Notes under the pieces: generated by a model | Seen by the model: only the letters and a program-made list of their open reading frames with translations | Databases searched by the model: none | Told to the model about the DNA's origin: nothing | Part shown: in pieces, positions 1-29,471 of the stretch | Layout: each line of letters starts with the position of its first letter | Numbering within the stretch: the first letter of the stretch is position 1 | Translations under genes and position numbers: made by a program | Virus record (IMG/VR): IMGVR_UViG_3300037459_000158 | Coordinates: 1-35,157 of that record | From: a virus | DNA length: 35,157 bases | Strand: one strand, 5' to 3'

Positions 1-2
1 CA

Positions 3-296
3 ACGGAGTCTGAGGTAAAGATACTTGCCTATGCGTACGCTGACACCTGTTTGGTCGCAGAAGACTCTGAGGATCGTGATAGCGCGATTGAAGACGAGGT
101 CCAAGGGTCAGGGGGTGGACTGGAACAGGTGCAATCGGCCTATATCGCGGTGTTTCGGAACTACATCACTGGTGGGCCAGGATACATGGGAGCGGTTTAT
201 CTGATCTTGTGGGATGGCGCACCAGAGTTCGTGTCGGTGGCCTATTGGGAGCGATCCCCGAGGCGAATCAAGATGATCCACTACGGCAACGTGTGA
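3..296 (+). CDS. hypothetical protein, 5'-partial
   Basis: The reading frame is open from the window edge to a TGA at 294-296, so the gene starts outside the window. A TTG at 51 is possible, but nothing upstream of it resembles a ribosome binding site. The visible part has an acidic stretch (EDSEDRDSAIEDE) followed by a compact part rich in aromatic and hydrophobic residues (YIAVFRNYI, YLILWDGAPEFVSVAYWERS), which suggests a small beta-rich domain. I do not recognise the family. It heads the visible part of a plus-strand operon of small genes. Confidence 0.6.
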   Translation, partial: TESEVKILAYAYADTCLVAEDSEDRDSAIEDEVQGSGGGLEQVQSAYIAVFRNYITGGPGYMGAVYLILWDGAPEFVSVAYWERSPRRIKMIHYGNV

Positions 297-326
297 GACA
301 GGATAGGGGGAAGAAAGGAATAGGGA

Positions 327-557
327 ATGAACAACAACGTAGGTAAATGGGTGTCGGTAAACGGTTCGATTGAACTGCCTTATGAAAGCGACTTCGTGTT
401 GGTGAAGGCTGCGTTCATCGGAGAAGACGGTTGCACGGTCAAGAGTCTAGGAGGACGGTACTACTTCGTGAGAAAGGGCCGCTTCGCAGACTTCCCAGGT
501 CCAAAGTTCGTGATTGACGCAACGAAGGATACGTTTCTTAAAAAGGGGGGACTATGA
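327..557 (+). CDS. small hypothetical protein (76 aa)
   Basis: The ATG at 327 follows a purine-rich AAAGGAATAGGGA. The stop overlaps the next start as ATGA, which supports translation as part of the operon. The product is a mixed hydrophobic and charged 76-aa protein with a GRYYFVRKGRF segment and no cysteine pairs, signal peptide or membrane helix. The family is not recognised. Confidence 0.7.
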   Translation: MNNNVGKWVSVNGSIELPYESDFVLVKAAFIGEDGCTVKSLGGRYYFVRKGRFADFPGPKFVIDATKDTFLKKGGL

Positions 558-835
558 AGCACAACGTCCACTTTTATGTGACGGTCAGGGTTGTGGTTGA
601 GGACGTGGAAGCTGACTCGCAGCTGGAAGCCATTGCCGAGGCTGAAAAGATCCTACTGCCCAAGCTCAATCACGGAATGTTGGACAATTATTCTGGTCAC
701 CCAACGGAATACGCCGACGAGGTCATCGGCTATCTGGTGGACGAGCAAGGCGACGAGGAGTATCTCCAGACCAGGGCTTATGACCAGAACAAAAACCCAG
801 GGAAACTATCGCCCACAACAGGGCAACCGATATGA
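554..835 (+). CDS. small hypothetical protein (93 aa)
   Basis: It starts at the ATG of an ATGA overlap and is preceded by AAAAGGGGGG. It ends in a second ATGA overlap with the DNA-binding gene downstream. The N-terminus (HFYVTVRVVVEDVEADSQLE) followed by a helical EAIAEAEKILLPKL looks like the beta-strand plus helix start of small phage proteins sometimes called DUF-type 'EAD/EAE' proteins. That resemblance is only by eye. Function unknown. Confidence 0.7.
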   Translation: MKHNVHFYVTVRVVVEDVEADSQLEAIAEAEKILLPKLNHGMLDNYSGHPTEYADEVIGYLVDEQGDEEYLQTRAYDQNKNPGKLSPTTGQPI

Positions 836-1584
836 CACCGCGAGGAGGCAAGAGGAGGTACTTCTGGACCGAGGAGCAGGACGAGTTCATGCGCCAGCAC
901 TACAACGGAAAGGTTGCAGGTCGAGCAGCCTGGATTGCCAAGGAGTTTGACGACTGGTATCCAGTTTGGCAAATCAAGAAACGTGCTGGAGTGTTGGGCC
1001 TGACAGTAGCAGCAGACCGACGCAACTGGACGGAGGTTGAGGAAAAGTTCCTCCGTGACTACCTCTGCTCTGCCAGTGCGCAGTACATAGCCAAGAAGCT
1101 CAAACGCAGCCTTGCTGCGGTCATGCTCAAGGCCAAGCGGGAGAAGATTCGGCGCGTAGCGATCAGGGAAGGCTACACCTTGCACCTATTGGAGCAATGC
1201 TTCGGGATGGATCACAGGGTTATCCAGCGTTGGATGAAGGAGAAGAAGCTCAAAGGGAAACGGCGCGGAGAGAACGGAGATCGCAGCACTTGGCATTTCA
1301 CCGAGCGGGACGTGCTGGAGTTCGTGATTGCCTACCCACTGGAGTTCCGGTTGGACAAGGTCAATCAGGCTTGGTTCATGGACTTGATTACTGGAGGACG
1401 GGAGAACGCGGAGCGGTCCACGGTCTGTGTCATGTGTGAAAGATGGCCGGGGGATGATCCTTATGTGCATCACAGGCCGACAGGCGACAACGAGGCCATG
1501 GAGATCTGGATTTACTGTCGAGGGTGCAGCGTTGTACCGAAGAAAATGGCGAAGAAGGAGGAACAGAATGGGTTTAAGGATTGA
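832..1584 (+). CDS. multi-domain DNA-binding protein (SANT/HTH plus zinc ribbon)
   Basis: This 250-aa protein appears to stack three helical DNA-binding units and a zinc ribbon. Residues about 8-57 (FWTEEQDEFMRQHY) and 63-106 (NWTEVEEKFLRDYL) each begin with the W-T-E-x-E pattern of SANT/Myb-like or GcrA-like helix-turn-helix repeats. Residues about 115-170 (LLEQCFGMDHRVIQRWMKE ... FTERDVLEFV) look like a MerR/excisionase-type winged helix. The C-terminus has CVMC and a later CRGC, a probable zinc ribbon. It overlaps the upstream gene by ATGA and the downstream zinc-ribbon gene by 17 bases. A transcription factor or site-specific DNA-binding role is inferred; its target is unknown. Confidence 0.75.
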   Translation: MTPRGGKRRYFWTEEQDEFMRQHYNGKVAGRAAWIAKEFDDWYPVWQIKKRAGVLGLTVAADRRNWTEVEEKFLRDYLCSASAQYIAKKLKRSLAAVMLKAKREKIRRVAIREGYTLHLLEQCFGMDHRVIQRWMKEKKLKGKRRGENGDRSTWHFTERDVLEFVIAYPLEFRLDKVNQAWFMDLITGGRENAERSTVCVMCERWPGDDPYVHHRPTGDNEAMEIWIYCRGCSVVPKKMAKKEEQNGFKD

Positions 1585-1786
1585 AGAAAAGGTCCCTGAA
1601 ACCGTCAGTGGTGAGTGTCCGTTCTGCCAATGCGACGACATACAGGGAGACTCGTTTGACGTTGAAGGGAACCACGTCTACCAGAGAATGTTTTGCCTTG
1701 GGTGTGAAGCATCATGGGACGACGAGTACAGGTTGGTGCGCCAAGCGAACACGGACGGGCGCACGATCACAAAGGAGGACAAATGA
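1568..1786 (+). CDS. small zinc-ribbon protein (72 aa)
   Basis: I chose the ATG at 1568 because AAGGAGG lies 6 bases upstream. The gene starts inside the 3' end of the preceding DNA-binding gene and ends in ATGA with the next. It contains CPFC (with a further C two residues on) and, about 27 residues later, CLGC, the two knuckles of a zinc ribbon, followed by an aromatic and acidic tail. Such mini zinc ribbons are common in phage accessory regions. The specific role is unknown. Confidence 0.75.
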   Translation: MGLRIEEKVPETVSGECPFCQCDDIQGDSFDVEGNHVYQRMFCLGCEASWDDEYRLVRQANTDGRTITKEDK

Positions 1787-1923
1787 AACAGATAACAGTG
1801 GATGAGATCAAAGAGGAGATCCGCTTCCAGATCAAAGCCTTGGAAGCAAACGTCAACCTGGAGTTGCCCCAAACCGTATTCGCACGGCTCTTGGAGTGGA
1901 TTGAACTGAAACGAGGAGGTTAA
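1783..1923 (+). CDS. small helical protein (46 aa)
   Basis: The start at 1783 is set by AAAGGAGG 5 bases upstream and by an ATGA overlap with the previous stop. The 46-aa product is almost entirely predicted helix (ITVDEIKEEIRFQIKALEAN ... VFARLLEWIELK). No known family is recognised. It ends with GAGGAGGT, which doubles as the ribosome binding site of the next small gene. Confidence 0.65.
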   Translation: MKQITVDEIKEEIRFQIKALEANVNLELPQTVFARLLEWIELKRGG

Positions 1924-2055
1924 TTGGAACTGTTTTTGTTTATCACTGGACTCTCACTGGCTGTGTGTACCGATGGTGGTCCACGTCGGTTGAGGAAACT
2001 GGCAAAGCATGGATGGGTGGTCGCATGTCTGTTGCACGTCTATTGCTGCGCCTGA
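1924..2055 (+). CDS. small membrane-type peptide (43 aa, TTG start)
   Basis: This short reading frame begins at TTG 1924, directly after the previous stop, with GAGGAGG 5 bases upstream. It ends at TGA 2053-2055, eleven bases before the next gene. The product starts with a hydrophobic stretch (ELFLFITGLSLAVC) and has a second hydrophobic stretch near the C-terminus (WVVACLLHVYCC), with a basic segment between. It could be a two-helix membrane peptide. Function is unknown; the support is the strong Shine-Dalgarno and the exact fit between its neighbours. Confidence 0.5.
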   Translation: MELFLFITGLSLAVCTDGGPRRLRKLAKHGWVVACLLHVYCCA

Positions 2056-2065
2056 AAGGAGCAGG

Positions 2066-2698
2066 ATGGCACTCGATACTCTGAAGTCGGCCAAAGAACT
2101 GGCGAAGGACAAGCCTCACGGTGTGAGGATGAAGTATCTGGGGGGATGCCGGTGTCTGCCTTGCAGGGGAGCTTACTCGCAATACGAAACGGATCGGCAG
2201 CGGGAGATCCGTGAGAGTGGCCGAAAGACAGGGACCGTTTCTGCTGACGAGGCCAGAGAACACCTGATTATGCTGTCAAAGAATGGTGTCGGCAGAAGAT
2301 CCGTGCATCATGCCAGTGGAGTGGCCGACACGATTTTGCACGAAATCAAATTGGGTAGGCGTAAGCGGATCTTTGCGAAGACGGAACATCGAATCCTACA
2401 GGTTGACGAAACAGCCAAGGGTGCAGCGGGGATCATACCAGCTGGCCCAACCTGGAAGCTGATAAACGAATTACTGGAGGAGGGCTACACCAAGTCGTAC
2501 TTGGCGAAGCGTCTAGGGCGCAAGGTTCCTGCACTTCAGATACACAAGGAGAGGGTGACCGTCAGAATCGCAGTCGAAATTGAACGGCTGCATCACACCA
2601 TCATGCTCAACGGGAGATCGGAGGCATCAGAAGCAAGGCAAATACGGAAAGATTATCAAGGGATGAAAGGAGGAAAATGGACGAACGAAAGAAGATGA
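2066..2698 (+). CDS. phage helix-turn-helix regulator with N-terminal Cys motif
   Basis: I chose the ATG at 2066 because AAAGGAG is correctly spaced upstream. The N-terminus carries the pattern HGVRMKYLGGCRCLPCRGAY, which I recognise from small DNA-binding proteins of actinophages and other phages (HGT..Y..GCRC..CR.A). It is followed by VSADEAREHLIMLSKNGVG and a helix-turn-helix with a LGRRKRIFAKTEHRIL segment typical of that family. A second helical DNA-binding unit (LINELLEEGYTKSYLAKRLG) lies near residues 130-155. It is probably a transcriptional regulator. The 210-aa product overlaps the start of the next mini-gene by 22 bases. Confidence 0.75.
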   Translation: MALDTLKSAKELAKDKPHGVRMKYLGGCRCLPCRGAYSQYETDRQREIRESGRKTGTVSADEAREHLIMLSKNGVGRRSVHHASGVADTILHEIKLGRRKRIFAKTEHRILQVDETAKGAAGIIPAGPTWKLINELLEEGYTKSYLAKRLGRKVPALQIHKERVTVRIAVEIERLHHTIMLNGRSEASEARQIRKDYQGMKGGKWTNERR

Positions 2699-2775
2699 CC
2701 AGATCAGAAGTTTTTGAACGAATCATGTTGCTAGGCCTGTCGGTAGCGGCAGCGGTAGCACTCAACGGTTGCTGA
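2677..2775 (+). CDS. mini membrane or lipoprotein-like peptide (32 aa)
   Basis: The ATG at 2677 follows AAAGGAGG by 4 bases and overlaps the end of the regulator gene. The 32-aa product has a charged N-terminus (MDERKKMTRSEVFER), a hydrophobic helix (IMLLGLSVAAAVAL) and ends in LNGC, which looks like a lipobox whose cysteine is the last residue. If processed, only a lipid-modified cysteine would remain, so it may simply be a membrane peptide. Function unknown. Confidence 0.5.
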   Translation: MDERKKMTRSEVFERIMLLGLSVAAAVALNGC

Positions 2776-2786
2776 AAGGAGGAACA

Positions 2787-2966
2787 ATGAAACAGCCAAT
2801 CAAGATCACGGTAGAGAAATCGGTACTGATTGCAGCGAGACAGAAGGCCATGGGGAAGGAGACTGTAATCAGCAACATCATTGAGGGGTTCTTGTCCCTG
2901 TGGATTGCGGGGAAGCTCGCGGATCCGGAGGAGTTGATGAGGGAAGTCGAGGAGGCCCAGGTATGA
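2787..2966 (+). CDS. small ribbon-helix-helix-like protein (59 aa)
   Basis: The start at 2787 has AAAGGAGG 6 bases upstream. The N-terminus reads as one beta strand (PIKITVEKSVLIAARQKA) followed by two helices (ETVISNIIEGFLSLWIAGKL), the order seen in Arc/CopG ribbon-helix-helix DNA-binding proteins and antitoxins. It overlaps the serine recombinase by ATGA, so it may regulate or accompany it. No toxin gene is adjacent. The family assignment is by fold pattern only. Confidence 0.6.
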   Translation: MKQPIKITVEKSVLIAARQKAMGKETVISNIIEGFLSLWIAGKLADPEELMREVEEAQV

Positions 2967-3547
2967 AACGCGCTGCGATTTACGCAAGGATCTCAACGGT
3001 ACGCCAAGACGAAGGCATGCAGTTGGAGGACTTGCGGGAGATGGCGAAACGGCGCAAGTGGGAGATCGTCGAGGAGTACGTTGACCGAGGGGTGAGCGGA
3101 AGCAAGGAGTCCCGAGAGGCTCTGGATCGAATGATGGCAGACGCGAAGCGAGGGAAGTTCGACATTGTCATGGTGTGGAAGTTTGACCGCTTTGCGCGAA
3201 GCCTACACCATCTGGTTTCTGCCTTGAGGGAGTTCAGCGAATTAGGGGTCCAGTTCGTTTCACACCAGGAAGCCGTGGACACGTCTACACCGATGGGCCG
3301 AGCTATGTTCGGGTTAATAGGCATCATGGCCGAATTTGAGCGCGAGCTTATTAACGAACGGGTATTGGCTGGACTGGACAGAGCCAGGAGGAACGGCACT
3401 CAACTCGGTCGCAGGGAGACACAGTTCGACGAGGCTTGGGCTGTTGTGCTGCGCCACGAAGGGAAATCATGGAGGAAGATCGCTGAACTGGTAGGTGTCT
3501 CCAAGACTGTGCTGCACAGAAGGATGAAAGAGAAAGGAGTGATATGA
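2963..3547 (+). CDS. small serine recombinase (resolvase/invertase family)
   Basis: The 194-aa protein matches the resolvase/invertase family in length and motifs: the N-terminal AIYARIST with the likely nucleophile Ser11, the region VDRGVSGSKESREALDRM, the WKFDRFARSL segment with conserved Asp and Arg, and the long E helix (GLIGIMAEFERELINERV). A C-terminal helix-turn-helix follows (SWRKIAELVGVSKTVLHRRM). Such enzymes resolve multimers or invert DNA between short res/inv sites; this is not a large integrase. The start at 2963 is fixed by an ATGA overlap with the preceding gene. I did not find obvious paired crossover sites next to it. On a phage-plasmid it could resolve dimers. Confidence 0.9.
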   Translation: MKRAAIYARISTVRQDEGMQLEDLREMAKRRKWEIVEEYVDRGVSGSKESREALDRMMADAKRGKFDIVMVWKFDRFARSLHHLVSALREFSELGVQFVSHQEAVDTSTPMGRAMFGLIGIMAEFERELINERVLAGLDRARRNGTQLGRRETQFDEAWAVVLRHEGKSWRKIAELVGVSKTVLHRRMKEKGVI

Positions 3548-3966
3548 AACCAAAGAAAGAGGAATGGAGATACATGGGGCGGATCCGGGACGGGAAGGTT
3601 CTCTTCTATTCCTATCAGGACGGAGACGGAGAACTTCGAGTCTTCAAGAAGCTCCCGGCGAGTTCCCCTGGAAGCCTGTACGAAGTCGAGGTCAAGCGAG
3701 AGAAGAATGGCGGGATCATAGTTCACGGCTCCCCGTCCTATGTGTTCGGTCAGGATATCTCGGAGGATAAAGAGATACGACTGAAGGCAGCCGCCGATGA
3801 TCGAGCCATCTCGATACAACTGGACACCGAACGCGCTGAGAAGGCCGGAGCCTATAAGGAACTAGAGGAAAACCTGGATGCTTTGAGATCTCTATATTTC
3901 AGACAAACTGGAGGTAGACGCGCTGCGTTTCTGGCTCACGTCATCCAAAGATTAACGAAACGATAG
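3544..3966 (+). CDS. hypothetical protein (140 aa)
   Basis: It starts in an ATGA overlap with the recombinase. The N-terminal half alternates beta-type segments (YMGRIRDGKVLFYSYQDGDG, SLYEVEVKREKNGGIIVHGS) and resembles a small barrel. The C-terminal half is helical (TERAEKAGAYKELEENLDAL). No cysteines or membrane segment are present and no family is recognised. Co-translation with the recombinase is suggested by the overlap; a functional link is not shown. Confidence 0.7.
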   Translation: MKPKKEEWRYMGRIRDGKVLFYSYQDGDGELRVFKKLPASSPGSLYEVEVKREKNGGIIVHGSPSYVFGQDISEDKEIRLKAAADDRAISIQLDTERAEKAGAYKELEENLDALRSLYFRQTGGRRAAFLAHVIQRLTKR

Positions 3967-3974
3967 GAGGACGA

Positions 3975-4232
3975 ATGTATATCCACACACGACCATTAAG
4001 AGTCGAGCATCTGGGTAAGCGGATTTACCTGCTCGACGACAAGAACTGCCTCGTCGCTGAACTTTCAAGTGACGAAGATTTCGATGAGAGACTTGGTCGA
4101 GCAGTCGCCATTGCCAAGGCGGTTGAGACCTATGAGATAGCAGAAACCTTGTATAAGGATCTCACCGAAGAAAAGGATCTTGTTGAATCCTTGGGTGAGT
4201 TCAAATTGGCATGGAGGGAAGCACATGGATAA
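3975..4232 (+). CDS. small hypothetical protein (85 aa)
   Basis: The ATG at 3975 follows AGGAGG by 4 bases, a strong ribosome binding site. The product has a short beta hairpin-like start (RLRVEHLGKRIYLLDDKNC is the approximate region) and a long helical remainder rich in Glu and Lys. It overlaps the next gene by 8 bases. Function not recognised. Confidence 0.7.
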   Translation: MYIHTRPLRVEHLGKRIYLLDDKNCLVAELSSDEDFDERLGRAVAIAKAVETYEIAETLYKDLTEEKDLVESLGEFKLAWREAHG

Positions 4233-4854
4233 ATCTTACCAAGGCCGAAGGGTTGAGAATGAATTGACTGTCACTGTTGTCCCCGGCCAGTCCAATGTTG
4301 GGAACCGGAAGCCATTGACCCACGTTTCTTACCACTCACCGGATGGGTTCGAGTGGGGTTACGGGGGCAGCGGTCCAGCGGATCTGGCTCTGGCGATCCT
4401 GACCGACTGGTTCGAGGAAGATCCAGTCAAAGTACAGACGTATGCACGAACAGGCGAGGGAGATCCGTCGTCGGCGGTCATCTTCCACCAGCAGTTCAAG
4501 GACAAGTTCATCGTGGGGTTGCCAAGGACTACCTGGAGGATCGCGGGTGGATCAATCAAGGCGTGGTCCAGCAAGATCGGTGCGCTGTGCAAGGACTGTA
4601 AGCGGGGTATGTACGAGTCGGACGGGTGTCGGGAGTTTGTTATCCCGATGAAAGATGGGGACAACCTACCTCCGATCAAGCACGGCGAGGAAACCAGAGC
4701 GGATTGGGGGAGTGACGGAGGTCGCTGCCATGACTGCGGAGCGAAGGTTGGGAAGTTTCATCACCCAGGTTGTGACGTGGAGGAATGCCCGAAGTGTGGG
4801 GGTCAGTTAATTGGGTGCAGCTGCGTGAAATACGCGGACGAGGAGGAAGAATGA
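4225..4854 (+). CDS. hypothetical protein with C-terminal zinc ribbons
   Basis: I chose the ATG at 4225, which has GGAGGGA upstream and overlaps the previous stop. The 209-aa protein has an N-terminal globular part with a GYGGSGPADLALAILTDWF segment also seen in phage proteins that contact DNA (by-eye resemblance). After it come CKDCKRG, CHDCGAKVGKFHHPGC and CPKCGGQLIGCSC, probably two or three zinc knuckles. It ends in ATGA with the next gene. It may be a nucleic-acid-binding accessory protein; function is unknown. Confidence 0.7.
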   Translation: MDKSYQGRRVENELTVTVVPGQSNVGNRKPLTHVSYHSPDGFEWGYGGSGPADLALAILTDWFEEDPVKVQTYARTGEGDPSSAVIFHQQFKDKFIVGLPRTTWRIAGGSIKAWSSKIGALCKDCKRGMYESDGCREFVIPMKDGDNLPPIKHGEETRADWGSDGGRCHDCGAKVGKFHHPGCDVEECPKCGGQLIGCSCVKYADEEEE

Positions 4855-5090
4855 GCGATTTATTAACTTGGGTGTGGAACGTGTACTATTTCATAGATGG
4901 TGTTTCGTGGCTGTTTGGTGTCATAGCTGTTGGATTCATCGGTGTTGTTGTTGGGTTGAGGAAATTGATGGTTTACTGCTGGCCTGACCTGGACACTTCA
5001 CTGAATAAGGCACTTAGGGCTGCGAAGCAAGGCCGGCCAGAGGGTGACCCAAAAAACGACGATGAGGTTGGCCGTGACGCGGTTAACTGA
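4851..5090 (+). CDS. small membrane protein (79 aa)
   Basis: The ATG at 4851 overlaps the upstream stop and has GAGGAGGAAG before it. The N-terminal half is hydrophobic (YYFIDGVSWLFGVIAVGFIG and on through VVVGL), giving one long or two short membrane helices. The C-terminal half is soluble and charged (KAAKQGRPEGDPKNDDEVGR region). It is the last gene of the plus-strand operon. A membrane role is inferred from hydropathy only. Confidence 0.7.
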   Translation: MSDLLTWVWNVYYFIDGVSWLFGVIAVGFIGVVVGLRKLMVYCWPDLDTSLNKALRAAKQGRPEGDPKNDDEVGRDAVN

Positions 5091-5188
5091 CAGTCCCGCA
5101 AGCTCTTACACCCCTTAAAAGTAAAGAGTACCCTAACATTCCCATCCGTGACTGAACGGCTCGACCCTAGCAAGGCTCACTGAGAGTA
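5091..5188. other. convergent junction between the two operons
   Basis: The plus-strand operon ends at 5090 and the minus-strand operon ends at 5189, so transcripts converge here. A weak hairpin can be drawn between CTCTTAC (about 5103-5109) and GTAAAGAG (about 5121-5128), without a clear U tract. A copy of the dispersed motif lies at 5133-5144 on the minus strand. A palindrome CCTCCGGAGG lies just inside the minus gene. No confident terminator is seen. Confidence 0.4.
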
Positions 5189-6196: not shown

Positions 6197-6251
6197 GACT
6201 TTATGCAAGAACTGGAAGGCAGTTGCACAACATGTGTGCAAAATGGAAAGT

Positions 6252-6557
6252 GGTGAAAGGTCCCTGGAGCCAGAAGGTATTCTTTTTCAGAGACTTCAGA
6301 GGGAAATGGTGCAAGGTGGTGAAAGGTCCCTGGACACTTTTCACCAGAGTTAAGATCTTTTCTATCAAGAGGATATCCTGTGTAAATGTATTGGGTGCAA
6401 GGAAAGGGGTACATAACTCTTTCTATAAATCTCTAAAAGGGTTTCCGGGTTTCCTATACTAAAGTCTTGGGAGTGGGGGGGTTACCTTTCACCATCCTGT
6501 AAGTCCTTTCTTCTCAGGCTCTAATTTGGTGAAAGGTGGTGAAAGGTGGTGAAAGGT
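6252..6557 (+). repeat. iteron-like GGTGAAAGGT decamers
   Basis: Direct copies of GGTGAAAGGT begin at 6252, 6318, 6528, 6538 and 6548. The last three are in perfect tandem, and an inverted copy (ACCTTTCACC) lies at 6484-6493. The copies at 6252 and 6318 extend to a shared 17-mer GGTGAAAGGTCCCTGGA. The set resembles iterons bound by a replication initiator or operators bound by a repressor. Confidence 0.75.
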
Positions 6558-6575
6558 GTTTTAGTTCGCTAAAAC
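6558..6575. other. perfect hairpin with TTCG loop
   Basis: GTTTTAG and CTAAAAC form a 7-bp perfect inverted repeat around TTCG, immediately after the tandem decamers. On the plus strand it is followed by AAAAC and a G run rather than by a U tract, so it is not a clear terminator. It could be a cruciform or protein-binding site next to the repeats. Confidence 0.5.
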
Positions 6576-6785
6576 AAAACAGGGGGGGTTTCGTGGTCAG
6601 TCAAATACTTTGCTGATTTACTATGCACCCTATTCACCAAACCGGCTCCCGAAATGGTGCAAGGGTGCATGCTATTTGACCATCTTTTTTATTTGACCCG
6701 GAAACTACCCACCTAACCCACACTCTCTCTATCCTCCCAATCTCGTATTTATACACTTTTCTCTGTATATTCCACTTCTTCTGAG

Positions 6786-6912
6786 CTAACATTCCCGGAG
6801 ATCCAGTACCTAACACTCCCTCTGCGACCTGGAGCCTCAATCCACCTAACATTCCCCACAGGGAACACCGTTCTAACACTCCCCCATAATAGGGACGCTG
6901 CTAACACTCCCC
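6786..6912 (-). repeat. array of five copies of the dispersed GGGRRTGTTAG motif
   Basis: Copies on the minus strand occupy 6786-6797, 6810-6821, 6846-6857, 6873-6884 and 6901-6912, with start-to-start spacing of 24, 36, 27 and 28 bp. Bases between the copies are not conserved. The last copy contains the stop codon of the zinc-ribbon gene at 6901-7179; the others lie in noncoding sequence downstream of it. Confidence 0.8.
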
Positions 6913-7179
6913 CGCTGGTACTGCCTCTTTCCCACCGTCGCAGCAGGACTCGAAGTAGCCACAATCGCGGCAGAACAGCTTGTCGCGGATCCATTTGGTC
7001 GGTGCACCGCAGAACGGGCATCTGGGCTTCCTAGATCTAACATTCCCACAGGTCGTCTTTCTAACATTCCCCCGGTACGGCTCCATCCCCCGGCCCCAGG
7101 AGAAGGCAGCTTCCCAGAGGTCCAGTGGCTCGGGTCCCAGGACCCAATCGTTGTTGAGCGGTCTATCTCCGTCACTCAT
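6901..7179 (-). CDS. zinc-ribbon protein (92 aa) with embedded motif copies
   Basis: The ATG at 7179 (GTG at 7182 also possible) follows a copy of the dispersed motif at 7189-7200. The C-terminal part is a clear zinc ribbon (CPFCGAPTKWIRDKLFCRDC). In the linker before it, two motif copies (7037-7048 and 7061-7072) are read in frame as GNVR repeats, and a third motif copy supplies the C-terminal EC and the TAG stop. The gene therefore tolerates three motif copies. It is probably a small nucleic-acid-binding protein. Confidence 0.7.
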   Translation of the reverse strand: MSDGDRPLNNDWVLGPEPLDLWEAAFSWGRGMEPYRGNVRKTTCGNVRSRKPRCPFCGAPTKWIRDKLFCRDCGYFESCCDGGKEAVPAGEC

Positions 7180-7199
7180 CACGATGCTCTAACATTCCC

Positions 7200-7466
7200 T
7201 CAGTACGTTGGTGGCCATGAATCTCCATGCCCATCATCCCAGGGTTCCTGCGGTCCTTTTCCTAATACTCCCTCTTTAGTGTCGATAACGATGGGCGAGT
7301 GCAACCCCGGATGCTCTTTGACTATTTTCATGGGGGTCCCCCCGCTGCGCAGCGAGGACCAACCGACGACAATGTCCTTTCCCTCTGCGTTCGTGGCCCT
7401 GACCTCGTAGCGCATATCGTCGGTTTTGAACAGGTCTACGATCCACTTCATCCACTGTTTATTCAT
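7200..7466 (-). CDS. hypothetical protein (88 aa)
   Basis: The ATG at 7466 is preceded by GAGGGAG, and the stop TGA abuts the motif copy at 7189-7200. The product begins with an amphipathic helix (KQWMKWIVDLFKTDDM) followed by a beta-rich part (RYEVRATNAEGKDIVVGWSS). A variant of the dispersed motif (7262-7273, GGGAGTATTAG) lies in frame. The YEVRATNAEGKDIVVG segment recalls small phage proteins of unknown function. Confidence 0.65.
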   Translation of the reverse strand: MNKQWMKWIVDLFKTDDMRYEVRATNAEGKDIVVGWSSLRSGGTPMKIVKEHPGLHSPIVIDTKEGVLGKGPQEPWDDGHGDSWPPTY

Positions 7467-7473
7467 GACTCCC

Positions 7474-7557
7474 TCAGTAGTGTGGAAACAGCCATTTGCT
7501 TATCGTCACCCCGATCACAATCACAGCGATAACGGTAACCACATCCCCACTATCCAT
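7474..7557 (-). CDS. small single-pass membrane peptide (27 aa)
   Basis: This short frame starts at ATG 7557 after the motif copy at 7564-7575, whose GAGGGAG is about 12 bases upstream. It ends at TGA 7474, just before the next gene. The product is a single hydrophobic helix (VVTVIAVIVIGVTISKWLF) with a very short N-terminus, typical of phage small membrane peptides. The evidence is composition and exact fit between neighbours. Confidence 0.45.
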   Translation of the reverse strand: MDSGDVVTVIAVIVIGVTISKWLFPHY

Positions 7558-7563
7558 CTGTAC

Positions 7564-7601
7564 CTAACACTCCCTCTGTCTGCTCTTTTCTAACACTCCC
7601 A
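7564..7601 (-). repeat. pair of dispersed-motif copies
   Basis: Two copies (7564-7575 and 7590-7601) lie 26 bp apart between the stop of the 7590-7805 gene and the start of the 27-aa membrane peptide. The upstream copy contains that gene's TAG stop codon. Confidence 0.75.
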
Positions 7602-11390: not shown

Positions 11391-11420
11391 AATTCCCTCC
11401 GCGTTTTAATCTGGATCCGT

Positions 11421-11507
11421 CTAACAATCCCCGGAGAACCTTCTGCTAACACTCCCCGGTAGTGGTTTCCTAACACTCCCGATTCAAAATCAGTTCTAAC
11501 CTTCCCC
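11421..11507 (-). repeat. four-copy array of the dispersed motif, about 25-bp period
   Basis: Copies at 11421-11432, 11446-11457, 11470-11481 and 11496-11507 are spaced 25, 24 and 26 bp apart in the same orientation, close to two and a half turns of the helix. The last contains the stop of the 11496-11795 gene. The next gene starts 31 bases after the first copy. Bases between the copies differ, so this is not a CRISPR array. Confidence 0.85.
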
Positions 11508-11795
11508 TTCGGTCCTCTGCTTCCAGAGTTCCATGATAGTCAGCTTCCCGTTGCATTGTTCCTTCAGTCCCTCAATAAATGCGGCGTAGCCAGCGTGACC
11601 TTCAGCTTCGTACTTCTCGATACCCTCGTTCCAGTCCTGGAGGGTCATCTGATAGCCCACGGACCCACACTCCGGACAGCATGGGATACCGTGACTGATA
11701 GCCTCACCCTCAACTGGTTCCGTGGCCGACAGACTATCCCACTCGTCGGTCCAGTAGGTGCAGAATCCATACCAAATCTCTTGTTCGTCATTCAT
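11496..11795 (-). CDS. zinc-binding phage hypothetical protein (99 aa)
   Basis: It starts in an ATGA overlap with AGGAGAAG upstream. The sequence has CCPECGSVGYQ, then a helical segment (NEGIEKYEAEGHAGYAAFIE) and a final EQC. The IPCCPECGSVGYQM segment is a zinc ribbon half seen in several phage proteins of this size. The stop codon lies in the last motif of the array. Function unknown. Confidence 0.7.
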   Translation of the reverse strand: MNDEQEIWYGFCTYWTDEWDSLSATEPVEGEAISHGIPCCPECGSVGYQMTLQDWNEGIEKYEAEGHAGYAAFIEGLKEQCNGKLTIMELWKQRTEGEG

Positions 11796-12387: not shown

Positions 12388-12403
12388 TGTTTCACATGAA
12401 ACA
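12388..12403. promoter_or_regulatory. parS-like centromere site
   Basis: TGTTTCACATGAAACA is one base different from the conserved bacterial parS (TGTTTCACGTGAAACA), with both TGTTTCA/TGAAACA arms perfect. It lies between the ribosome binding site of the HAD gene and the motif copy at 12411-12422. A ParB-like gene lies at 27852-29471. A host ParB could also bind it. One such site by chance in 35 kb would be unlikely by a rough count. Confidence 0.65.
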
Positions 12404-12410
12404 CTCCGCG

Positions 12411-12461
12411 CTAACATTCCCCGTACAAACGTCTGTACTCTACAGCGTTCTAACATCCCCC
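12411..12461 (-). repeat. two dispersed-motif copies
   Basis: Copies at 12411-12422 and 12450-12461 lie between the 12450-12656 gene and the HAD gene. The second contains the upstream gene's stop codon. The pair flanks the parS-like site on one side. Confidence 0.75.
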
Positions 12462-14608: not shown

Positions 14609-14871
14609 ATTAGACCATGCTCCCTCTGGATCTCGTTAAGCTCATCTACCATCTTGTCCACTTCTGGCGACCAGGGAAGGTGAACTTGCATGACTCCACT
14701 GATCACTTTCCCGTCCGGACTGCGAGACAGCTCCTTCCACACGATCTCGATATCGTCCATCGTGTACTTCTCCTTGACCTCCAGGGCCGCTTCGATCTTC
14801 TCAATCGGCAGAGCTGCTCCTGCCAGAAGTGCCAGCATACTGAGTGCTTGTCGTCTATCCATTCCATTCAT
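14605..14871 (-). CDS. Tat-signal small exported protein (88 aa)
   Basis: Starts at 14871 and 14862 are both possible; the first has GGAG 9 bases upstream in the motif copy at 14875-14886. The second start would give MDRRQALSMLALLAGAALP, a compact twin-arginine signal: RRQAL and a hydrophobic run ending at AALP. The mature part is acidic and helical (EVDKMVDELNEIQREHGLI). Export to the periplasm as a folded protein is inferred; function unknown. Confidence 0.6.
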   Translation of the reverse strand: MNGMDRRQALSMLALLAGAALPIEKIEAALEVKEKYTMDDIEIVWKELSRSPDGKVISGVMQVHLPWSPEVDKMVDELNEIQREHGLI

Positions 14872-14874
14872 GAT

Positions 14875-14942
14875 CTAACACTCCACTCCCATCAGCACGT
14901 TATATCTAACATTCCCTCGTTGATCCGGAACTAACATCCCCC
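14875..14942 (-). repeat. three-copy array of the dispersed motif
   Basis: Copies at 14875-14886, 14906-14917 and 14931-14942 have spacings of 31 and 25 bp. The middle copy supplies the TAG stop of the 14906-15436 gene, and the third is read in frame near that gene's C-terminus as KGDVSS. The first lies right before the Tat-signal gene and provides its ribosome-binding GGAG. Confidence 0.8.
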
Positions 14943-15706: not shown

Positions 15707-16179
15707 GCGACTTTGGGCCTCCAGCAATTAACTGTCAATGCGGCTTCTCCATCGGCCTTGATCACACCGTCCTGGCATTTGATCCAGAGGCTATCCATAA
15801 CGAACGTACTGCCATCAATGGGTGTCTGAAACAACAGGTGGTTCCACCTCCGGGATTCCGCAAGGGGCCTCACCGAGACTCTGCACCCCACTGTATCCAA
15901 ACACGCTGCTGAGATGCCCTTGATGTAAGTGAACCCTTTCAACTGCGCTTCTCCACCGCCCTGTGGAAAGTAGAACTTAAAAAGCTGAAAATCCTCGGCC
16001 CCAATCGTGTAGAGCTTCGATTGGCTCTCCGATAATGGAAAAGCAGAGGTAACGATCTTGTCGTAGTCCGGATCCGGAAGCTCCGGTAGGTCTGTGCCTG
16101 GGTGTACGTCTAACAGTCCCCCGGCAGCAGCACTTACGATAACGCCGGCAGTTGCCTTGAAGAAATCTCGTCGTTTCAT
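15703..16179 (-). CDS. Tat-signal exported protein (158 aa)
   Basis: ATG 16179 overlaps the upstream stop (ATGA) and gives MKRRDFFKATAGVIVSAAAG, the best twin-arginine signal in the window: Arg-Arg, Phe-Phe-Lys, then a small-residue hydrophobic run. The motif copy at 16110-16121 is read right after the signal as GGLLD. The mature part (about 130 aa) is beta-rich with cysteines (CLDTVGCRVSVR, WIKCQDGVIKADG). Export as a folded protein is likely; function unknown. Confidence 0.75.
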   Translation of the reverse strand: MKRRDFFKATAGVIVSAAAGGLLDVHPGTDLPELPDPDYDKIVTSAFPLSESQSKLYTIGAEDFQLFKFYFPQGGGEAQLKGFTYIKGISAACLDTVGCRVSVRPLAESRRWNHLLFQTPIDGSTFVMDSLWIKCQDGVIKADGEAALTVNCWRPKVA

Positions 16180-24389: not shown

Positions 24390-24978
24390 GTTTCACCACC
24401 TTCTTGAACGCGCGCGCCGTTAAACGGTCCTGCTTGAGTACCCTGCCCAAGATTTTACTCACTGGATAGTCGACAGGAATCAGGTCCCCTGGTTTGAGTT
24501 TCCCTCGGTGCGAGAGGTGGCTGTTGCTGGCGTAGTAAAGCTCGGGAATCTCCCACGACTCGATGTACTTGCGGAGCCTCTCCAGGGCTTCCTTCCGGGC
24601 TTCCTGTTTATCCTCCGTACTGGTCTTGTCAGTGATCAGCGGGAAGTCTGGTTGGTAGGTGAGATCCATGACGTAGTTCAGGTTGACCAGCGCACCGTTT
24701 GTTCCAGTGGTTGCTGCGTAAAAGGCAGGACGCTCCCGATCATAAGAGTCCCTCGGATCTTCCTCGTTCAGCCCATCGACTGGCTCCGCGATCCACTGGC
24801 CCACGTTGACCGGGACGTTGATGGATTTCTTCCAGCCTGTCCAAAAGAAGAAGTAGTCGCCTAGCTTGGTCTCTTGGGTGAAGCGGTTTGGTGTTGTCCA
24901 ACTTCTAACACTCCCCTGAGCAATTCTGGAGCTAACAGTTCCCCCGATCACGGCTCCAAAGAAAGTTCTTCTATTCAT
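24382..24978 (-). CDS. Tat-signal exported protein (198 aa) with two motif copies in the signal
   Basis: ATG 24978 is in an ATGA overlap. The start MNRRTFFGAVIGGTVSSRIA has a twin-arginine and FF motif followed by a small-residue run. Two copies of the dispersed motif (24932-24944 and 24905-24916) are read in frame in the signal and just after it, as GTVSS and GSVRS. The mature protein has aromatic and charged parts (DYFFFWTGWKKSINV, EDKQEARKEALERLRKYIES). Probably periplasmic; function unknown. Confidence 0.7.
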   Translation of the reverse strand: MNRRTFFGAVIGGTVSSRIAQGSVRSWTTPNRFTQETKLGDYFFFWTGWKKSINVPVNVGQWIAEPVDGLNEEDPRDSYDRERPAFYAATTGTNGALVNLNYVMDLTYQPDFPLITDKTSTEDKQEARKEALERLRKYIESWEIPELYYASNSHLSHRGKLKPGDLIPVDYPVSKILGRVLKQDRLTARAFKKVVKHG

Positions 24979-25547: not shown

Positions 25548-25920
25548 GAATGTCCTCCCTGCTGTTAGCAACCAGGACGTGCAGCCCGACCTCTTTCACC
25601 CCCTTGGCGCGGGCTTTATCCAGCAAAGGTATCCTGGCGGGATCCAGTTTCATCTTGGCCTCTCCCTCAGTTTCAGCCACTACCCCCACAACCCACTCGT
25701 TGCGGTCATGTCGGCTGTCGTCCCGGCCCGTCCACCAATACCAACGCATCGGACGATGCCAATGCTGTCGGAAAGCCTCTTCCCTGGTAGCCATACGCTT
25801 CTTCCATGACTTAGCTGCATGATCCGCTCCGAATCCCCAACCGATAGCCCCGCCCATGATGGCGACAACCAGCAAAACAAAACTAGCCTGGAGCCAAGTC
25901 CACATTGATATCTCACCCAT
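25531..25920 (-). CDS. membrane-anchored hypothetical protein (129 aa)
   Basis: ATG 25920 overlaps the stop of the TnpB-like gene (TAATG). The N-terminus is a single membrane helix (TWLQASFVLLVVAIMGGAIG), followed by a basic, Trp-rich segment (HRPMRWYWWTGRDDSRHDRN) and a helical, soluble C-terminus. It is coupled to the TnpB-like gene, which suggests that gene is part of the phage operon rather than a recent transposon insertion. Function unknown. Confidence 0.65.
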   Translation of the reverse strand: MGEISMWTWLQASFVLLVVAIMGGAIGWGFGADHAAKSWKKRMATREEAFRQHWHRPMRWYWWTGRDDSRHDRNEWVVGVVAETEGEAKMKLDPARIPLLDKARAKGVKEVGLHVLVANSREDIHVQTI

Positions 25921-27203
25921 TACTGCTCTCCCCTCTGGCCTACGGCCAACAGTCTATTCTTTAACCGTGACTCGATCATGTTCAATTCCTCCACCTTACC
26001 CTTCAGGATCTTTCCCGGCTTGCGGGTGATCTTCCTTCGGCTCTTAGGCAACAGGTTCTTGAGCGCGTTCCACTCAGCCCAATGGGACCGCCCACACTTC
26101 TCGCACAGGACGGAATGAGAAGCGTTGACCACCTGGGTCTGGCCTCCGCAGCGGCAACAATTACGGGTGACTCCCACCTTGTAGTCATTGACTACCTTGA
26201 AGGGCAATCCTGCCAGGGCCATCTTGTACTGAAGCTCGTCCAGCAGCTTCGCAAAGCAGTAGTTGGCCATGCGATAGTTCTTGGCCTTCTCCGGAGGACT
26301 CTTGCCCTTGGTGAACTTGTCGCGCACACGATTGTGACGACCTACGGTGATGGCAGGATTGGTTCCCTCAACAGCCACGAAGATCCAATCACAGACCTGG
26401 GCCGAGACTGTATGCGTGATCCAGGTAGCAAAGCGGTTCTCTCTCTGTCCGATCTGCTTGATCTTCTGGAGCTTCTTCTTCTCTCCCAGGGCCTTGCGGA
26501 GATTCCTCCACTTCCTTTTCAATGCCCAATAGCTCTGGCCCCGCACGGTCATGTAGCGATAGGAGTTGTCGGCGTACACCACCAGGACCGAGACCAGCTT
26601 CCGCTGCCCTGTGTGGATGGTCACCAGGGATCTTCCTACCCCCTTCTTCCGCTTCACAATCGGCAACCGGCAAGCGATCGCTGCGAACCATTTGCTTTTC
26701 CTCCGGAAGATCTCGACCTCTCCATGTTTGATAGCCTTCTCGAGTACGATTTTCTGTCTTTCTCCGCAGCGGAACTCACAGTCAATGACCATATCCTTGC
26801 GGAGTTGGATCCGCAGCCGGTACTCCCGTTTCATTTCATCATTCACAGGCAGGACCGAGACAGCCCGATCCCGCGCACAGAAGCGAGGCTTCCCGTCAGT
26901 CACGGAGGGCAGACCCCTCTCCTTGCTTTTCCATAGGCCAACATAGGATCTCCAGTTGGCGTTGATTTCCTGTGCAGCGGAGTCTTTCAGGTGGGAAGGG
27001 TAATCCTTCGGCATGGCGTGACGGGCCACGGAAGCGGTAGCAGACTCATCCTCAGCTTCTTTGGCAGCTAGGACAGAGCGGGTTCCCCTGACGAGACAAT
27101 CTTTGTAGAGTTCACACCAGTAAAGAAGTTCAGCTTCAATCTCCGGTGTGACAAGGAGTTTAACTTTGGCGGCAACGGTCTGCTCGGTTTGGTCCTGTTT
27201 CAC
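25920..27203 (-). CDS. TnpB-like protein with substituted RuvC catalytic residues (427 aa)
   Basis: I chose GTG 27203 (AAGGG 9 bases upstream); an ATG at 27224 inside a motif copy gives 434 aa. It has the TnpB/Cas12 C-terminal layout: a RuvC-I strand at IHTG, a RuvC-II strand at AVEG, a zinc ribbon (NCCRCGG ... CEKCG) and RuvC-III at WAEWNALKNLL. In active TnpB these are DxG, E and DxN. Here the first Asp is His197, the Glu279 is kept, and the third Asp is Glu377 (numbering from the GTG). Nuclease activity is probably lost. No terminal inverted repeats or TnpA gene are seen. Nuclease-dead TnpB repressors (TldR) are a known precedent; the role here is inferred. Confidence 0.75.
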   Translation of the reverse strand: MKQDQTEQTVAAKVKLLVTPEIEAELLYWCELYKDCLVRGTRSVLAAKEAEDESATASVARHAMPKDYPSHLKDSAAQEINANWRSYVGLWKSKERGLPSVTDGKPRFCARDRAVSVLPVNDEMKREYRLRIQLRKDMVIDCEFRCGERQKIVLEKAIKHGEVEIFRRKSKWFAAIACRLPIVKRKKGVGRSLVTIHTGQRKLVSVLVVYADNSYRYMTVRGQSYWALKRKWRNLRKALGEKKKLQKIKQIGQRENRFATWITHTVSAQVCDWIFVAVEGTNPAITVGRHNRVRDKFTKGKSPPEKAKNYRMANYCFAKLLDELQYKMALAGLPFKVVNDYKVGVTRNCCRCGGQTQVVNASHSVLCEKCGRSHWAEWNALKNLLPKSRRKITRKPGKILKGKVEELNMIESRLKNRLLAVGQRGEQ

Positions 27204-27217
27204 TACGGTTGTCCCTT

Positions 27218-27229
27218 CTAACATTCCCT
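27218..27229 (-). promoter_or_regulatory. dispersed-motif copy overlapping the TnpB-like gene start
   Basis: AGGGAATGTTAG lies directly after the terminator-like hairpin and contains the ATG of the longer start of the TnpB-like gene. This is the only motif copy in the stretch between 24944 and 29494. Confidence 0.7.
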
Positions 27230-27420: not shown

Positions 27421-27852
27421 TTAATTCAGCATGACATCTGATTGAATGAGTTTTCCCTGTTCGACCAGGTCAACGGCTTTTTCTAGCATCCACAATACAC
27501 TCTGCTTATTGCCAGGGTCCAGATGTTTGACCTCGATGGTGACCCCTTGCCCCAATTCTTTACCTTCTGGGCCTGTCAGCTTCCAGGTCTGAATCTCCAA
27601 AGTGGGGTTAAGGATGTTTCGGTCGATGTCACCACCCCCCCCACAGTACGGACAGGGATCGAGGATCTTACCTTCCGACTTCAGTTGCCCTACTCCCCGG
27701 CAGAAGTTACAGACGACTCTAGCCCCGCCTGTCTTGCGCTGCTCCTGCAGCAACACTTCCATTATGGCTTTGACCGTTTGCTGGAGGACCTCAACGGCTT
27801 CCGTGAGGTCCTTGTTGGCCGAGAGCAGGGTCTCGATTACTTTCCCTTCCAT
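27421..27852 (-). CDS. DnaJ-type zinc-finger protein (143 aa)
   Basis: ATG 27852 overlaps the ParB stop (TAATG). The sequence CNFCRGVGQLKSEGKILDPC plus PYCGGGG is a CxxCxGxG zinc-finger pair like that in DnaJ. The N-terminus is helical (DLTEAVEVLQQTVKAIMEVL), and the C-terminus mixed. It lacks a J-domain, so it is not a chaperone itself. Its role beside ParB is unknown. Confidence 0.75.
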   Translation of the reverse strand: MEGKVIETLLSANKDLTEAVEVLQQTVKAIMEVLLQEQRKTGGARVVCNFCRGVGQLKSEGKILDPCPYCGGGGDIDRNILNPTLEIQTWKLTGPEGKELGQGVTIEVKHLDPGNKQSVLWMLEKAVDLVEQGKLIQSDVMLN

Positions 27853-29471
27853 TATGATGCTAGCTTTGCAAGGTTGACGGGTTCGAGTTTCGTTTTCTTT
27901 TTCGTGGCCTTCTTCTTGGCCGTTTTCTTCTTGGCTTTGGCGGTCTCTTTCGCCTTGGCCTCTCGCTTCACATCTTTTTCAATCTGTGCCGAGTCGATAT
28001 CGAACATAGTACACGCATCCTTGAAAGAATCGTGAAGTTTTCCATTCCAATCTCTGTGTCCTTCCCGGCTCACGACCAACTCGACAACGATGCTTCGCAC
28101 TTCAGAGCCTTTGGCCGTTTCCAGATAGTCGAGCAGAAACTTACCCCATTTCATATCCCAGGCATCCTTCGCCATGGTGTAGGGAATCTCTCGACGCTTG
28201 ATGAGGGCCTGAAGGTTGTCGCTGGTGTACCAATTATGGGTCAGTGATTTAGCAAGAAACAACCAGAATTTGTCGGTGACTTTCGTTGACTTGGCGTTGT
28301 CAGCGATCTGAGCTAGAGATTCCTTGAACACCTGGGCCTGGATCTTCCTTTTCGCTGTCTCTCTTTTCTGCTCGTCCTTCCATTTATTATCTCGATTCCC
28401 TGACTCTCGCGCCCACTTGAACTTCTTTTTGAGGACCGCTTCGGCTTCCTTTTTATTCACGGTAGGGAGAAGCCCATCCTCGGTTTGAACCAATGTGATC
28501 TCAGGACAATCCTTACCGAGCAACTCTTGATAGCTCCGGGTCTTGCCATCCTGGTAGCATTGTTTTTTGAGTTCAAGCAGGGAACTGTTGTGCGACAGCC
28601 GACCATAGGAGATATGCTTCTCAGCTTCTTTCCCCGCCAGAACTTCCTTGCCCTGGGCTTTTGCTTTCTCTATGAGGATCGCTTGGTTGGTTTCCACTTT
28701 AGCGCGGAAACACTCCGGGTCAGTACACACATCTGCACTCGTATTCGGGTAGAGATCCTTCTGATTCCCGGTGCGCTTGGGACAGGTCGTACAGGGTCCT
28801 GCCTTGGGTAGCAGCTTTTCATCCTTCGTGGAAAAACCACAACCCTTGAGTCGGATCATGTAGTTTTCCTCGATATGGTCCTTAGCTGCACGGAAAGTCA
28901 TTGCTCCGTCTTCGTTCCAGTTGTCCCCTTCAAGAATTTCTTGCAGAGCCTTATCCTGTTGGGCTTTGCCGGGGATACGAGCGATCAGCAGCCCTATGGA
29001 GGCAGAGATCTCCCCCTTGTCCAAAGCCTTCTGGCCTTTACCGCAGAGACTTACCAGCTTCAGCCGACCATAGATATAGGCTCGGCTCTTGTTGATCTTC
29101 TCGGCCAAGTCCTCGGCTTTGTACCCGAACTTGTCGAGCATGTAGCGGTAGCCTTTGGCTTCCTCTATCTCTGTGAGGTCCTGACGCTGAAGGTTCTCGA
29201 TCATCCCAAGCTCAAAGGCTTCTTCGTCCGTCAATTTCTTGGTGATCGCTGGAATGGTTTTGACCTTGGCTTCCTTGCTGGCCCGGAACCTTCGTTCCCC
29301 GACGACCAGCTGGAACTTATCGCCGTTGGGTCTAACCAAGATCGGTTGAAGAACTCCGTGAGTCTTGATGCTATCGGCCAGTTCCGTCAGCTGCTCTGGA
29401 TCGAAGTGCTTGCGTGGGTTGGTTTTGGAGATGGTGACGCTCTCCAATGGAAGATTGATTACATTTCCCAT
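27852..29471 (-). CDS. ParB-like partition protein (539 aa)
   Basis: The start MGNVINLPLESVTISKTNPR matches ParB N-terminal domains. The CTP-binding motif GERRFRA stands at residues 58-64 and ENLQRQ at 92-97, and a helix-turn-helix at about 117-138 (EDLAEKINKSRAYIYGRLKL). A cysteine cluster follows (CTTCPKRTGN ... CTDPECFRAK), as I recall from ParB-like proteins of mobile elements. The C-terminus is long and Lys-rich. ParB binds parS and spreads by CTP hydrolysis; the parS-like site at 12388-12403 fits. No ParA is in the window. Confidence 0.85.
   Translation of the reverse strand: MGNVINLPLESVTISKTNPRKHFDPEQLTELADSIKTHGVLQPILVRPNGDKFQLVVGERRFRASKEAKVKTIPAITKKLTDEEAFELGMIENLQRQDLTEIEEAKGYRYMLDKFGYKAEDLAEKINKSRAYIYGRLKLVSLCGKGQKALDKGEISASIGLLIARIPGKAQQDKALQEILEGDNWNEDGAMTFRAAKDHIEENYMIRLKGCGFSTKDEKLLPKAGPCTTCPKRTGNQKDLYPNTSADVCTDPECFRAKVETNQAILIEKAKAQGKEVLAGKEAEKHISYGRLSHNSSLLELKKQCYQDGKTRSYQELLGKDCPEITLVQTEDGLLPTVNKKEAEAVLKKKFKWARESGNRDNKWKDEQKRETAKRKIQAQVFKESLAQIADNAKSTKVTDKFWLFLAKSLTHNWYTSDNLQALIKRREIPYTMAKDAWDMKWGKFLLDYLETAKGSEVRSIVVELVVSREGHRDWNGKLHDSFKDACTMFDIDSAQIEKDVKREAKAKETAKAKKKTAKKKATKKKTKLEPVNLAKLAS

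What the first reader, a model, noticed from the sequence alone, without database searches (positions are those of the whole stretch)
11421..11507. Motif copies form arrays with a 24-28 bp period
Arrays at 11421-11507 (spacing 25, 24, 26), 6786-6912 (24, 36, 27, 28), 7037/7061 (24), 7564/7590 (26), 14906/14931 (25) and 24905/24932 (27) show a preferred spacing near 2.5 helical turns with unrelated spacers. Spacing of this kind suggests side-by-side protein binding or multi-copy RNA elements rather than chance.
Basis: seen in the sequence. Interest (0 to 1): 0.65.

Follow-up and report, generated by a model that had tools for sequence, protein, structure and literature searches.

The report
Mobile 24-base modules in phage genomes

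Summary
All listed copies exist, on one strand. In this window 10 of 35 neighbour distances are 24-29 bases, against about 1.3 expected. In related contigs with the window left out, 67 of 97 distances between 11 and 61 bases are 24-29.

The explanation does not hold. The spacers are not unrelated. Read on the coding strand, the unit is GGGANTGTTAG plus the next 13 bases. The same 13-base tails recur between other neighbours: identity is near 100% over 24-25 bases and falls to background outside, even where no second copy is near. About 14 tail families lie at two or more distant loci. Fifty comparisons show a different tail between conserved flanks. No tail is repeated within one contig except one diverged tandem pair. 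The core's one variable base travels with the left flank, not with the tail. Array period is module length plus 0-5 filler bases, not helical phasing.

The carriers are one uncultured tailed-phage clade (complete relative about 108 kb). Units lie between small, presumably early, genes, follow transcription, and are absent from structural genes. Mechanism is inferred: core-anchored copying or capture of a short tract of fixed length. No reverse transcriptase, tyrosine recombinase, hairpin or known RNA family was found.

The parts
11408..11431 (-). module: core GGGATTGTTAG (11421-11431) plus tail ACGGATCCAGATT (11408-11420)
   Evidence: exact core; absent at the same site in G003 and G001
11433..11456 (-). 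module: core GGGAGTGTTAG (11446-11456) plus tail CAGAAGGTTCTCC; 1-base filler at 11432
   Evidence: same tail with other neighbours in G001, G003 and G005
11457..11480 (-). module: core GGGAGTGTTAG (11470-11480) plus tail GAAACCACTACCG; no filler
   Evidence: exact core
11483..11506 (-). module with one mismatch: GGGAAGGTTAG (11496-11506) plus tail AACTGATTTTGAA; its TAG is the stop codon of ORF 11496-11795
   Evidence: same site in G001 and G003
6773..6911 (-). array of five modules, cores at 6786, 6810, 6846, 6873, 6901; fillers 0, 12, 3 and 4 bases; tails CTCAGAAGAAGTG, GTACTGGATCTCC, GTGGATTGAGGCT, AACGGTGTTCCCT, CAGCGTCCCTATT
   Evidence: tails recur with other neighbours in relatives
7024..7071 (-). 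two modules back to back (24 bases), cores 7037 and 7061, inside the zinc-ribbon-like ORF 6901-7182, read in frame as GNVR
7249..7272 (-). isolated module (core 7262-7272, GGGAGTATTAG) with tail GAAAAGGACCGCA, a tail found in 8 other contigs
7551..7600 (-). two modules, cores 7564 and 7590, 2-base filler
14862..14941 (-). three modules, cores 14875 (one mismatch), 14906, 14931 (one mismatch); tail ATATAACGTGCTG recurs in relatives
16097..16120 (-). isolated module inside a coding sequence, tail ACGTACACCCAGG; the same tail lies at four distant loci in relatives (about 15.0, 97.05, 105.9 and 106.5 kb on G003)
24892..24942 (-). two modules, cores 24905 and 24932 (one mismatch)
27205..27228 (-). 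module at the 5' end of the TnpB-like gene (25920-27224), tail AAGGGACAACCGT, found in an unrelated array in G014
5120..5143 (-). exact module near the left limit of the motif-bearing region; apart from a one-mismatch copy at 5087, no copy lies further left (1-5086), where genes run on the + strand

Best explanation
The arrays are pile-ups of a mobile sequence module of 24-25 bases, (G)GGGANTGTTAG followed by 13 bases, oriented with the transcript. SHOWN: the module has the same length wherever it sits, is gained and lost between phages, occurs at distant loci in different phages, has its 13-base tail replaced at a conserved site, and has a tail that is practically never repeated within one contig; a new module often lies 0-5 bases from an existing one, which gives the 24-29 period. 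INFERRED: the core is the recognition or annealing site from which a tract of fixed short length (core plus about 13 bases on its 3' side) is copied or captured into another site. The simplest picture is core-primed short-patch copying: the left flank and its core, including base 5, stay in place, 13 new bases are synthesised from another module, and the strand rejoins its own right flank. Capture of about 24-base protected or nuclease-cut fragments is the alternative. Also inferred: the core is tolerated or useful between genes because it serves a transcript-oriented regulatory function.
For: Length-defined unit: 195 context-different pairs sharing a tail have identity near 1.0 over offsets 5-19, 0.83-0.91 at 20-23, 0.61 at 24, 0.40 at 25, and background about 0.25-0.3 from about offset 28 on. 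The same boundary appears for 20 independent tails where neither partner has a second core within 60 bases. Mobility: 62 tail families have two or more units; 17 were flagged at loci more than 250 bases apart on G003 coordinates, about 14 of them real on inspection. Chance sharing is about 0.6 pairs (13-mer arithmetic), against 191 flank-different pairs. Gain and loss: filled and empty sites at matching flanks. Tail replacement: 50 pairwise cases with conserved left and right flanks; base 5 is unchanged in 40, and several have exactly zero length change, e.g. G010:85 against G002:886. Base 5 goes with the left side: 8% mismatch when only the left flank is shared, 39% when only the right is shared, 45% when neither is. 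Uniqueness: 1 of 3051 within-contig pairs share a tail. Tails are not copied from elsewhere in the virus: 5 of 161 match outside units against 1.6 for shuffles. Placement: 194 of 274 copies lie between called genes although 82% of the DNA is coding; 5 of 8 reverse copies lie in a block whose genes are also reversed.
Against: The enzyme and the copying step are not identified; no reverse transcriptase or tyrosine recombinase was found, so the step may depend on host proteins. Some filled sites carry inserts of about 20-39 bases rather than 24. A few fillers travel with their tail (CAAAGCGTCAGTG-tg), as plain recombination at cores would predict. Selection on the core could not be separated from recency: two-mismatch copies show no excess (117 against 141 on the other strand), which fits either. 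Many pairs counted are not independent, and most contigs are short fragments.
Confidence: 0.5

Rival explanations
1. Plain recombination or template switching between the 11-base cores shuffles whatever lies between two cores; the module has no defined length of its own.
For: Base 5 of the core stays with the left flank. Array insertions fit a junction inside the core: between GTACTGGATCTCC and CTCGATTGAG the left core keeps G while the right core changes from G to A when a unit is inserted (G012 against G005/G006).
Against: Isolated units with no second core within 60 bases show the same 24-25-base boundary. Fillers behind the same tail differ: GTACTGGATCTCC is followed by 0, 2, 3, 4, 5 or 12 filler bases.
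Confidence: 0.2
2. The core is a DNA site for a phage repressor or transcription factor (like the stoperators of cluster A mycobacteriophages) and the spacing is set by neighbouring bound proteins.
For: Asymmetric, clade-specific, dispersed, oriented with transcription, concentrated between small genes, absent from structural genes. L5 stoperators share orientation and intergenic placement (PMC9283540).
Against: Does not explain shared 13-base tails or the 24-base boundary of isolated units. The spacing range 24-29 is about half a helical turn. No repressor-like protein was recognised in 128 G003 proteins, though no cluster A repressor sequence could be fetched for a direct comparison.
Confidence: 0.12
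3. The core acts in the mRNA: a cleavage, decay or translation-control site for early phage messages (RegB-, CsrA- or SAS-like), present in many copies.
For: Sense orientation also in the inverted ParB block; position between small genes or at stop codons (40 copies supply the stop codon).
Against: No conserved structure: folding energy of core plus tail is no better than with shuffled tails. No Rfam match except a tRNA. Copies are not at a fixed distance from start codons. Does not explain tail mobility.
Confidence: 0.1
4. Spacer-like acquisition: tails are taken up from a limited outside source (host or other mobile elements) next to a fixed core, so the same tail is acquired independently by different phages.
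For: Tails do not come from the phage genome, are practically unique within a contig and shared between genomes. A related phage carries a CRISPR array.
Against: The genome-contig scan found no cellular genome with this pattern beyond simple repeats and chance pairs, the host is unknown, and units are scattered and often single.
Confidence: 0.06
5. Assembly artefact: chimeric contigs joined at short shared words.
For: Metagenome contigs, many short; left-only and right-only shared pairs exist.
Against: The same tails occur with both flanks different in independent samples; tail replacement leaves both flanks intact; the period is the same in the 108 kb contig with matching ends.
Confidence: 0.02

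Closest known systems
Stoperators of cluster A mycobacteriophages (L5; PMC9283540)
   Same: Short asymmetric sequence, more than twenty copies, oriented with transcription, in short intergenic spaces
   Different: 13 bases, different sequence, bound by a known two-domain repressor; I know of no mobile tails or 24-base modules there
Start Associated Sequences of cluster K mycobacteriophages (PMC3203893)
   Same: Asymmetric, one orientation, restricted to the non-structural half of the genome, function unknown
   Different: Sit 3-7 bases before start codons; consensus GGGATAGGAGCCC; no tail exchange reported
12 bp indels of Sulfolobus rudiviruses and lipothrixviruses (mentioned in PMC4390879)
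   Same: Very short length-defined insertions and deletions in a virus family
   Different: 12 bases, generally within ORFs; I know of no constant core (own knowledge)
Mobile regulatory cassettes (PeSL) of T4-type phages (from memory, not re-read)
   Same: Small regulatory pieces that move between intergenic sites of phage genomes
   Different: Larger, promoter plus stem-loop; here no stem-loop and a 13-base exchangeable part
CRISPR arrays
   Same: Constant short element alternating with unique sequences shared between strains
   Different: Units occur singly and scattered, filler length varies, core and tail move together, no cas gene recognised

Membership tests
Cluster A stoperators | asymmetric short site oriented with transcription, in short intergenic spaces, many copies | tested here: met
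Cluster A stoperators | cognate repressor with HTH and stoperator domain in the same genome | tested here: inconclusive
   no repressor-like family in 128 G003 proteins; the L5 record was not available for direct comparison
Start Associated Sequences | 3-7 bases upstream of start codons | tested here: not met
   distance to the next start is broad, mostly tens to hundreds of bases
CRISPR array | regular repeat-spacer array with constant repeat and near-constant spacer length | tested here: not met
   188 of 330 units have no second core within the next 60 bases; fillers vary
CRISPR array | cas genes nearby | tested here: not met
   no Cas family in the Pfam and PHROGs scans other than a TnpB-like TNB domain
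Integron cassettes | IntI tyrosine recombinase and attC sites | tested here: not met
   no tyrosine recombinase among 128 G003 proteins scanned; a 24-base unit is too short for attC
Diversity-generating retroelement | reverse transcriptase and adenine-directed mutagenesis | tested here: not met
   no RVT_1 in the window or G003; only one core position varies
Palindromic repeat elements (REP, GC clusters, double hairpins) | inverted repeat or hairpin | tested here: not met
   folding energy not better than with shuffled tails
Rfam RNA families | match at gathering score | tested here: not met
   only tRNA-Met

The most novel reading that the evidence does not exclude
A phage clade carries a previously undescribed micro-mobile system: a constant 11-base core from which an exchangeable 13-base tail of fixed length is repeatedly copied or swapped between sites and genomes, giving each genome a set of practically unique tails, by a length-measuring mechanism not known from transposons, integrons, CRISPR or diversity-generating retroelements.
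Probability: 0.35. Interest if true: 0.85.

Novelty: new variant of a known kind. Interest (0 to 1): 0.62.

Why it matters
If right, DNA pieces of only 24-25 bases can behave as discrete mobile units with a constant and an exchangeable part, smaller than any transposon or cassette I know of. It would point to an unknown short-patch copying or fragment-capture process in phage infection, and it would warn that regular spacing of short motifs need not mean side-by-side protein binding: it can be the length of a moving unit.

Tried and rejected
Helical phasing as cause of the period: rejected, isolated units keep the same 24-25-base boundary. Hairpins in core plus tail or upstream: no signal. Reverse transcriptase: none found. 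Tails copied from elsewhere in the virus genomes: no. Known RNA family: none but tRNA. Cellular genomes with the same pattern: the one genome-contig scan gave only simple telomere-like repeats, tandem repeats and chance pairs. Low-GC marine-type contigs found by the first pattern carry a 22-base tandem array GGGAGTGTTAGGGACATAGTAT, not this system; G024 and G028-G030 also unrelated. More distant relatives found through the major capsid protein lack the core and carry other dispersed repeats. Purifying selection on the core: not separable from recency. Indel-length spectrum across the family: weak, because many unrelated indels occur between genes. The L5 repressor record was not in the collection.

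Full report
The observation. On the + strand the motif is CTAACANTCCC; most genes in this part of the window run on the - strand, so on the coding strand it reads GGGANTGTTAG. The window holds 36 copies with at most one mismatch, all on one strand, where shuffles give about two. All coordinates and spacings in the finding are correct. Ten of 35 neighbour distances are 24-29 bases; two null models give 1.3-1.4 and never reach 10 in 5000 trials.

The carrier. The window is an IMG/VR virus record, 92% identical over 17 kb to part of a 108,390-base contig (G003, IMGVR_UViG_3300024521_000001) with matching ends about 130 bases long. That genome has terminase, portal and major head protein matches; the nearest cultured head proteins, at 26-28% identity, are those of Myxococcus phages Mx8 and Mx9 and a Stenotrophomonas phage. 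About 26 further contigs of the same clade carry the motif. In G003 the copies lie at about 80-108 kb and 15-17 kb among small genes and helicase, ParB-like and nuclease genes; none lie among the structural genes (about 25-75 kb) or in a leftward gene block (0.3-14 kb). That this is the early region is an inference.

Spacing in the clade. Three scans of the whole viral collection for core pairs at 22-30, 31-61 and 11-21 bases make the histogram nearly free of selection: only two extra contigs were added to the family set by the wider scans. With the window left out, 67 pairs lie at 24-29, 4 at 11-23, 5 at 30-35 and 21 at 36-61.

The spacers are not unrelated. The 13 bases 3' of the core recur with other neighbours and in other genomes. 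Examples are gtactggatctcc, aacggtgttccct, cagaaggttctcc, gaaaaggaccgca, acgtacacccagg and ctgccagcctcgt. In 195 pairs that share a tail but differ on both sides, identity is near 1.0 up to offset 19, then 0.91, 0.83, 0.88 and 0.89 at offsets 20-23, falls to 0.61 at offset 24 and 0.40 at 25, and reaches background a few bases later. The boundary is not made by the next core: 20 independent tails compared in isolated contexts give the same drop at 24-26. The unit is therefore a module of 24-25 bases, and the array period is module plus filler. Fillers behind the same tail vary, for example 0, 2, 3, 4, 5 and 12 bases behind gtactggatctcc.

Dynamics. Filled and empty sites can be aligned at many places; inserts are usually near 24 bases but range from about 20 to 39. 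In 50 comparisons the same left and right flanks enclose different tails. Projection on G003 shows about 14 of 62 shared tail families at two or more loci more than 250 bases apart, acatacacccagg at four; a further three flagged families were set aside because they fall at the circular joint or only just pass the limit. Within one contig only 1 of 3051 unit pairs shares a tail, a diverged tandem pair. Base 5 of the core varies (A 156, G 77, C 21, T 20) and stays with the left flank: 8% mismatch when the left flank alone is shared, 39% when the right alone is, 45% when neither is. This places the junction right of base 5. Tails do not come from elsewhere in the viral genomes.

Orientation. Five of eight reverse copies lie upstream of ParB in contigs where that block is inverted and its genes run the other way, so orientation follows transcription rather than a genome-wide strand; three copies are exceptions, one of them (G010:339) an antisense copy of a tail known from the sense orientation.

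What it is not. No hairpin, no Rfam family other than a tRNA, no reverse transcriptase, no tyrosine recombinase or recognised repressor among 128 proteins of G003. The genome does encode a serine resolvase-like protein, a TnpB-like protein, a PD-(D/E)XK nuclease, a RuvC-like resolvase, a RadC-like protein and a phage recombination-directionality-factor-like protein; any of these, or host proteins, could be involved, but nothing here links them to the modules.

Mechanism. The facts to explain are a fixed length counted from the core, retention of the left flank and of base 5, return to the original right flank after 13 new bases, insertion next to existing modules, and near absence of duplicates within a contig. 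Core-primed short-patch copying fits the first three, and with a second switch at a neighbouring core the fourth; capture of protected or nuclease-cut 24-base fragments fits the first and the insertions. Near-uniqueness may reflect loss of duplicates by recombination or a one-copy-at-a-time process. I hold the module as established (about 0.9) and the copying mechanism as a best guess (about 0.3); the single confidence of 0.5 is for the combined statement. Whether the core also has a regulatory function is open: its placement resembles stoperators (PMC9283540) and SAS elements (PMC3203893), but conservation of the core cannot be separated from recency.

Limits. Most contigs are metagenome fragments; many pairs are not independent; the host is unknown; gene calls are my own simple model. 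Chimeric assembly cannot be excluded for individual contigs, but it would not create the same tail with two different sets of flanks in several samples, nor a constant 24-25-base boundary.

Noticed in passing
G032 and G033 (IMGVR_UViG_3300018057_000010 and IMGVR_UViG_3300038429_000587); G033 39819-40428, loci L153-L154: Relatives of this phage carry a CRISPR-like array: 37-base repeat GTTGCAGRCTAGCGAGAGRYGATGGGTTTGYTGYAAC, spacers 32-36 bases, nine repeats in one array and a second short array.
   Followed up: partly
G034 (L156-L158) and G031 (L142-L147), dispersed: Each of these relatives has its own dispersed palindrome (GTCCATATATGGAC and GTCCCAATTGGGAC), perhaps centromere-like sites for a ParB-like protein.
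   Followed up: no
window + strand about 12389-12438; G003 and G001 at the same site: A parS-like palindrome GTTTCATGTGAAAC lies next to another palindrome GTACAGACGTTTGTAC; the genome encodes a ParB-like protein at 27852-29471.
   Followed up: no
window 25920-27224 (-): A TnpB-like gene (TNB domain) whose first codons overlap a module; in G014 the same module tail sits in an array about 65 kb away on the linear G003 map.
   Followed up: partly
L012, L013, L016, L017 and about 15-20 other low-GC contigs: A different 22-base tandem array GGGAGTGTTAGGGACATAGTAT by chance shares the core sequence.
   Followed up: no
Genome-contig loci L088-L107, Tidjanibacter sp. RGIG6250: Many contigs of this one genome bin carry telomere-like TTAGGGAGTG repeats, unusual for a bacterium and perhaps foreign contamination of the bin.
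   Followed up: no
window about 6200-6600: A long stretch without called genes, with repeated CTTTCACCAC units, beyond the last array, possibly a replication origin.
   Followed up: no
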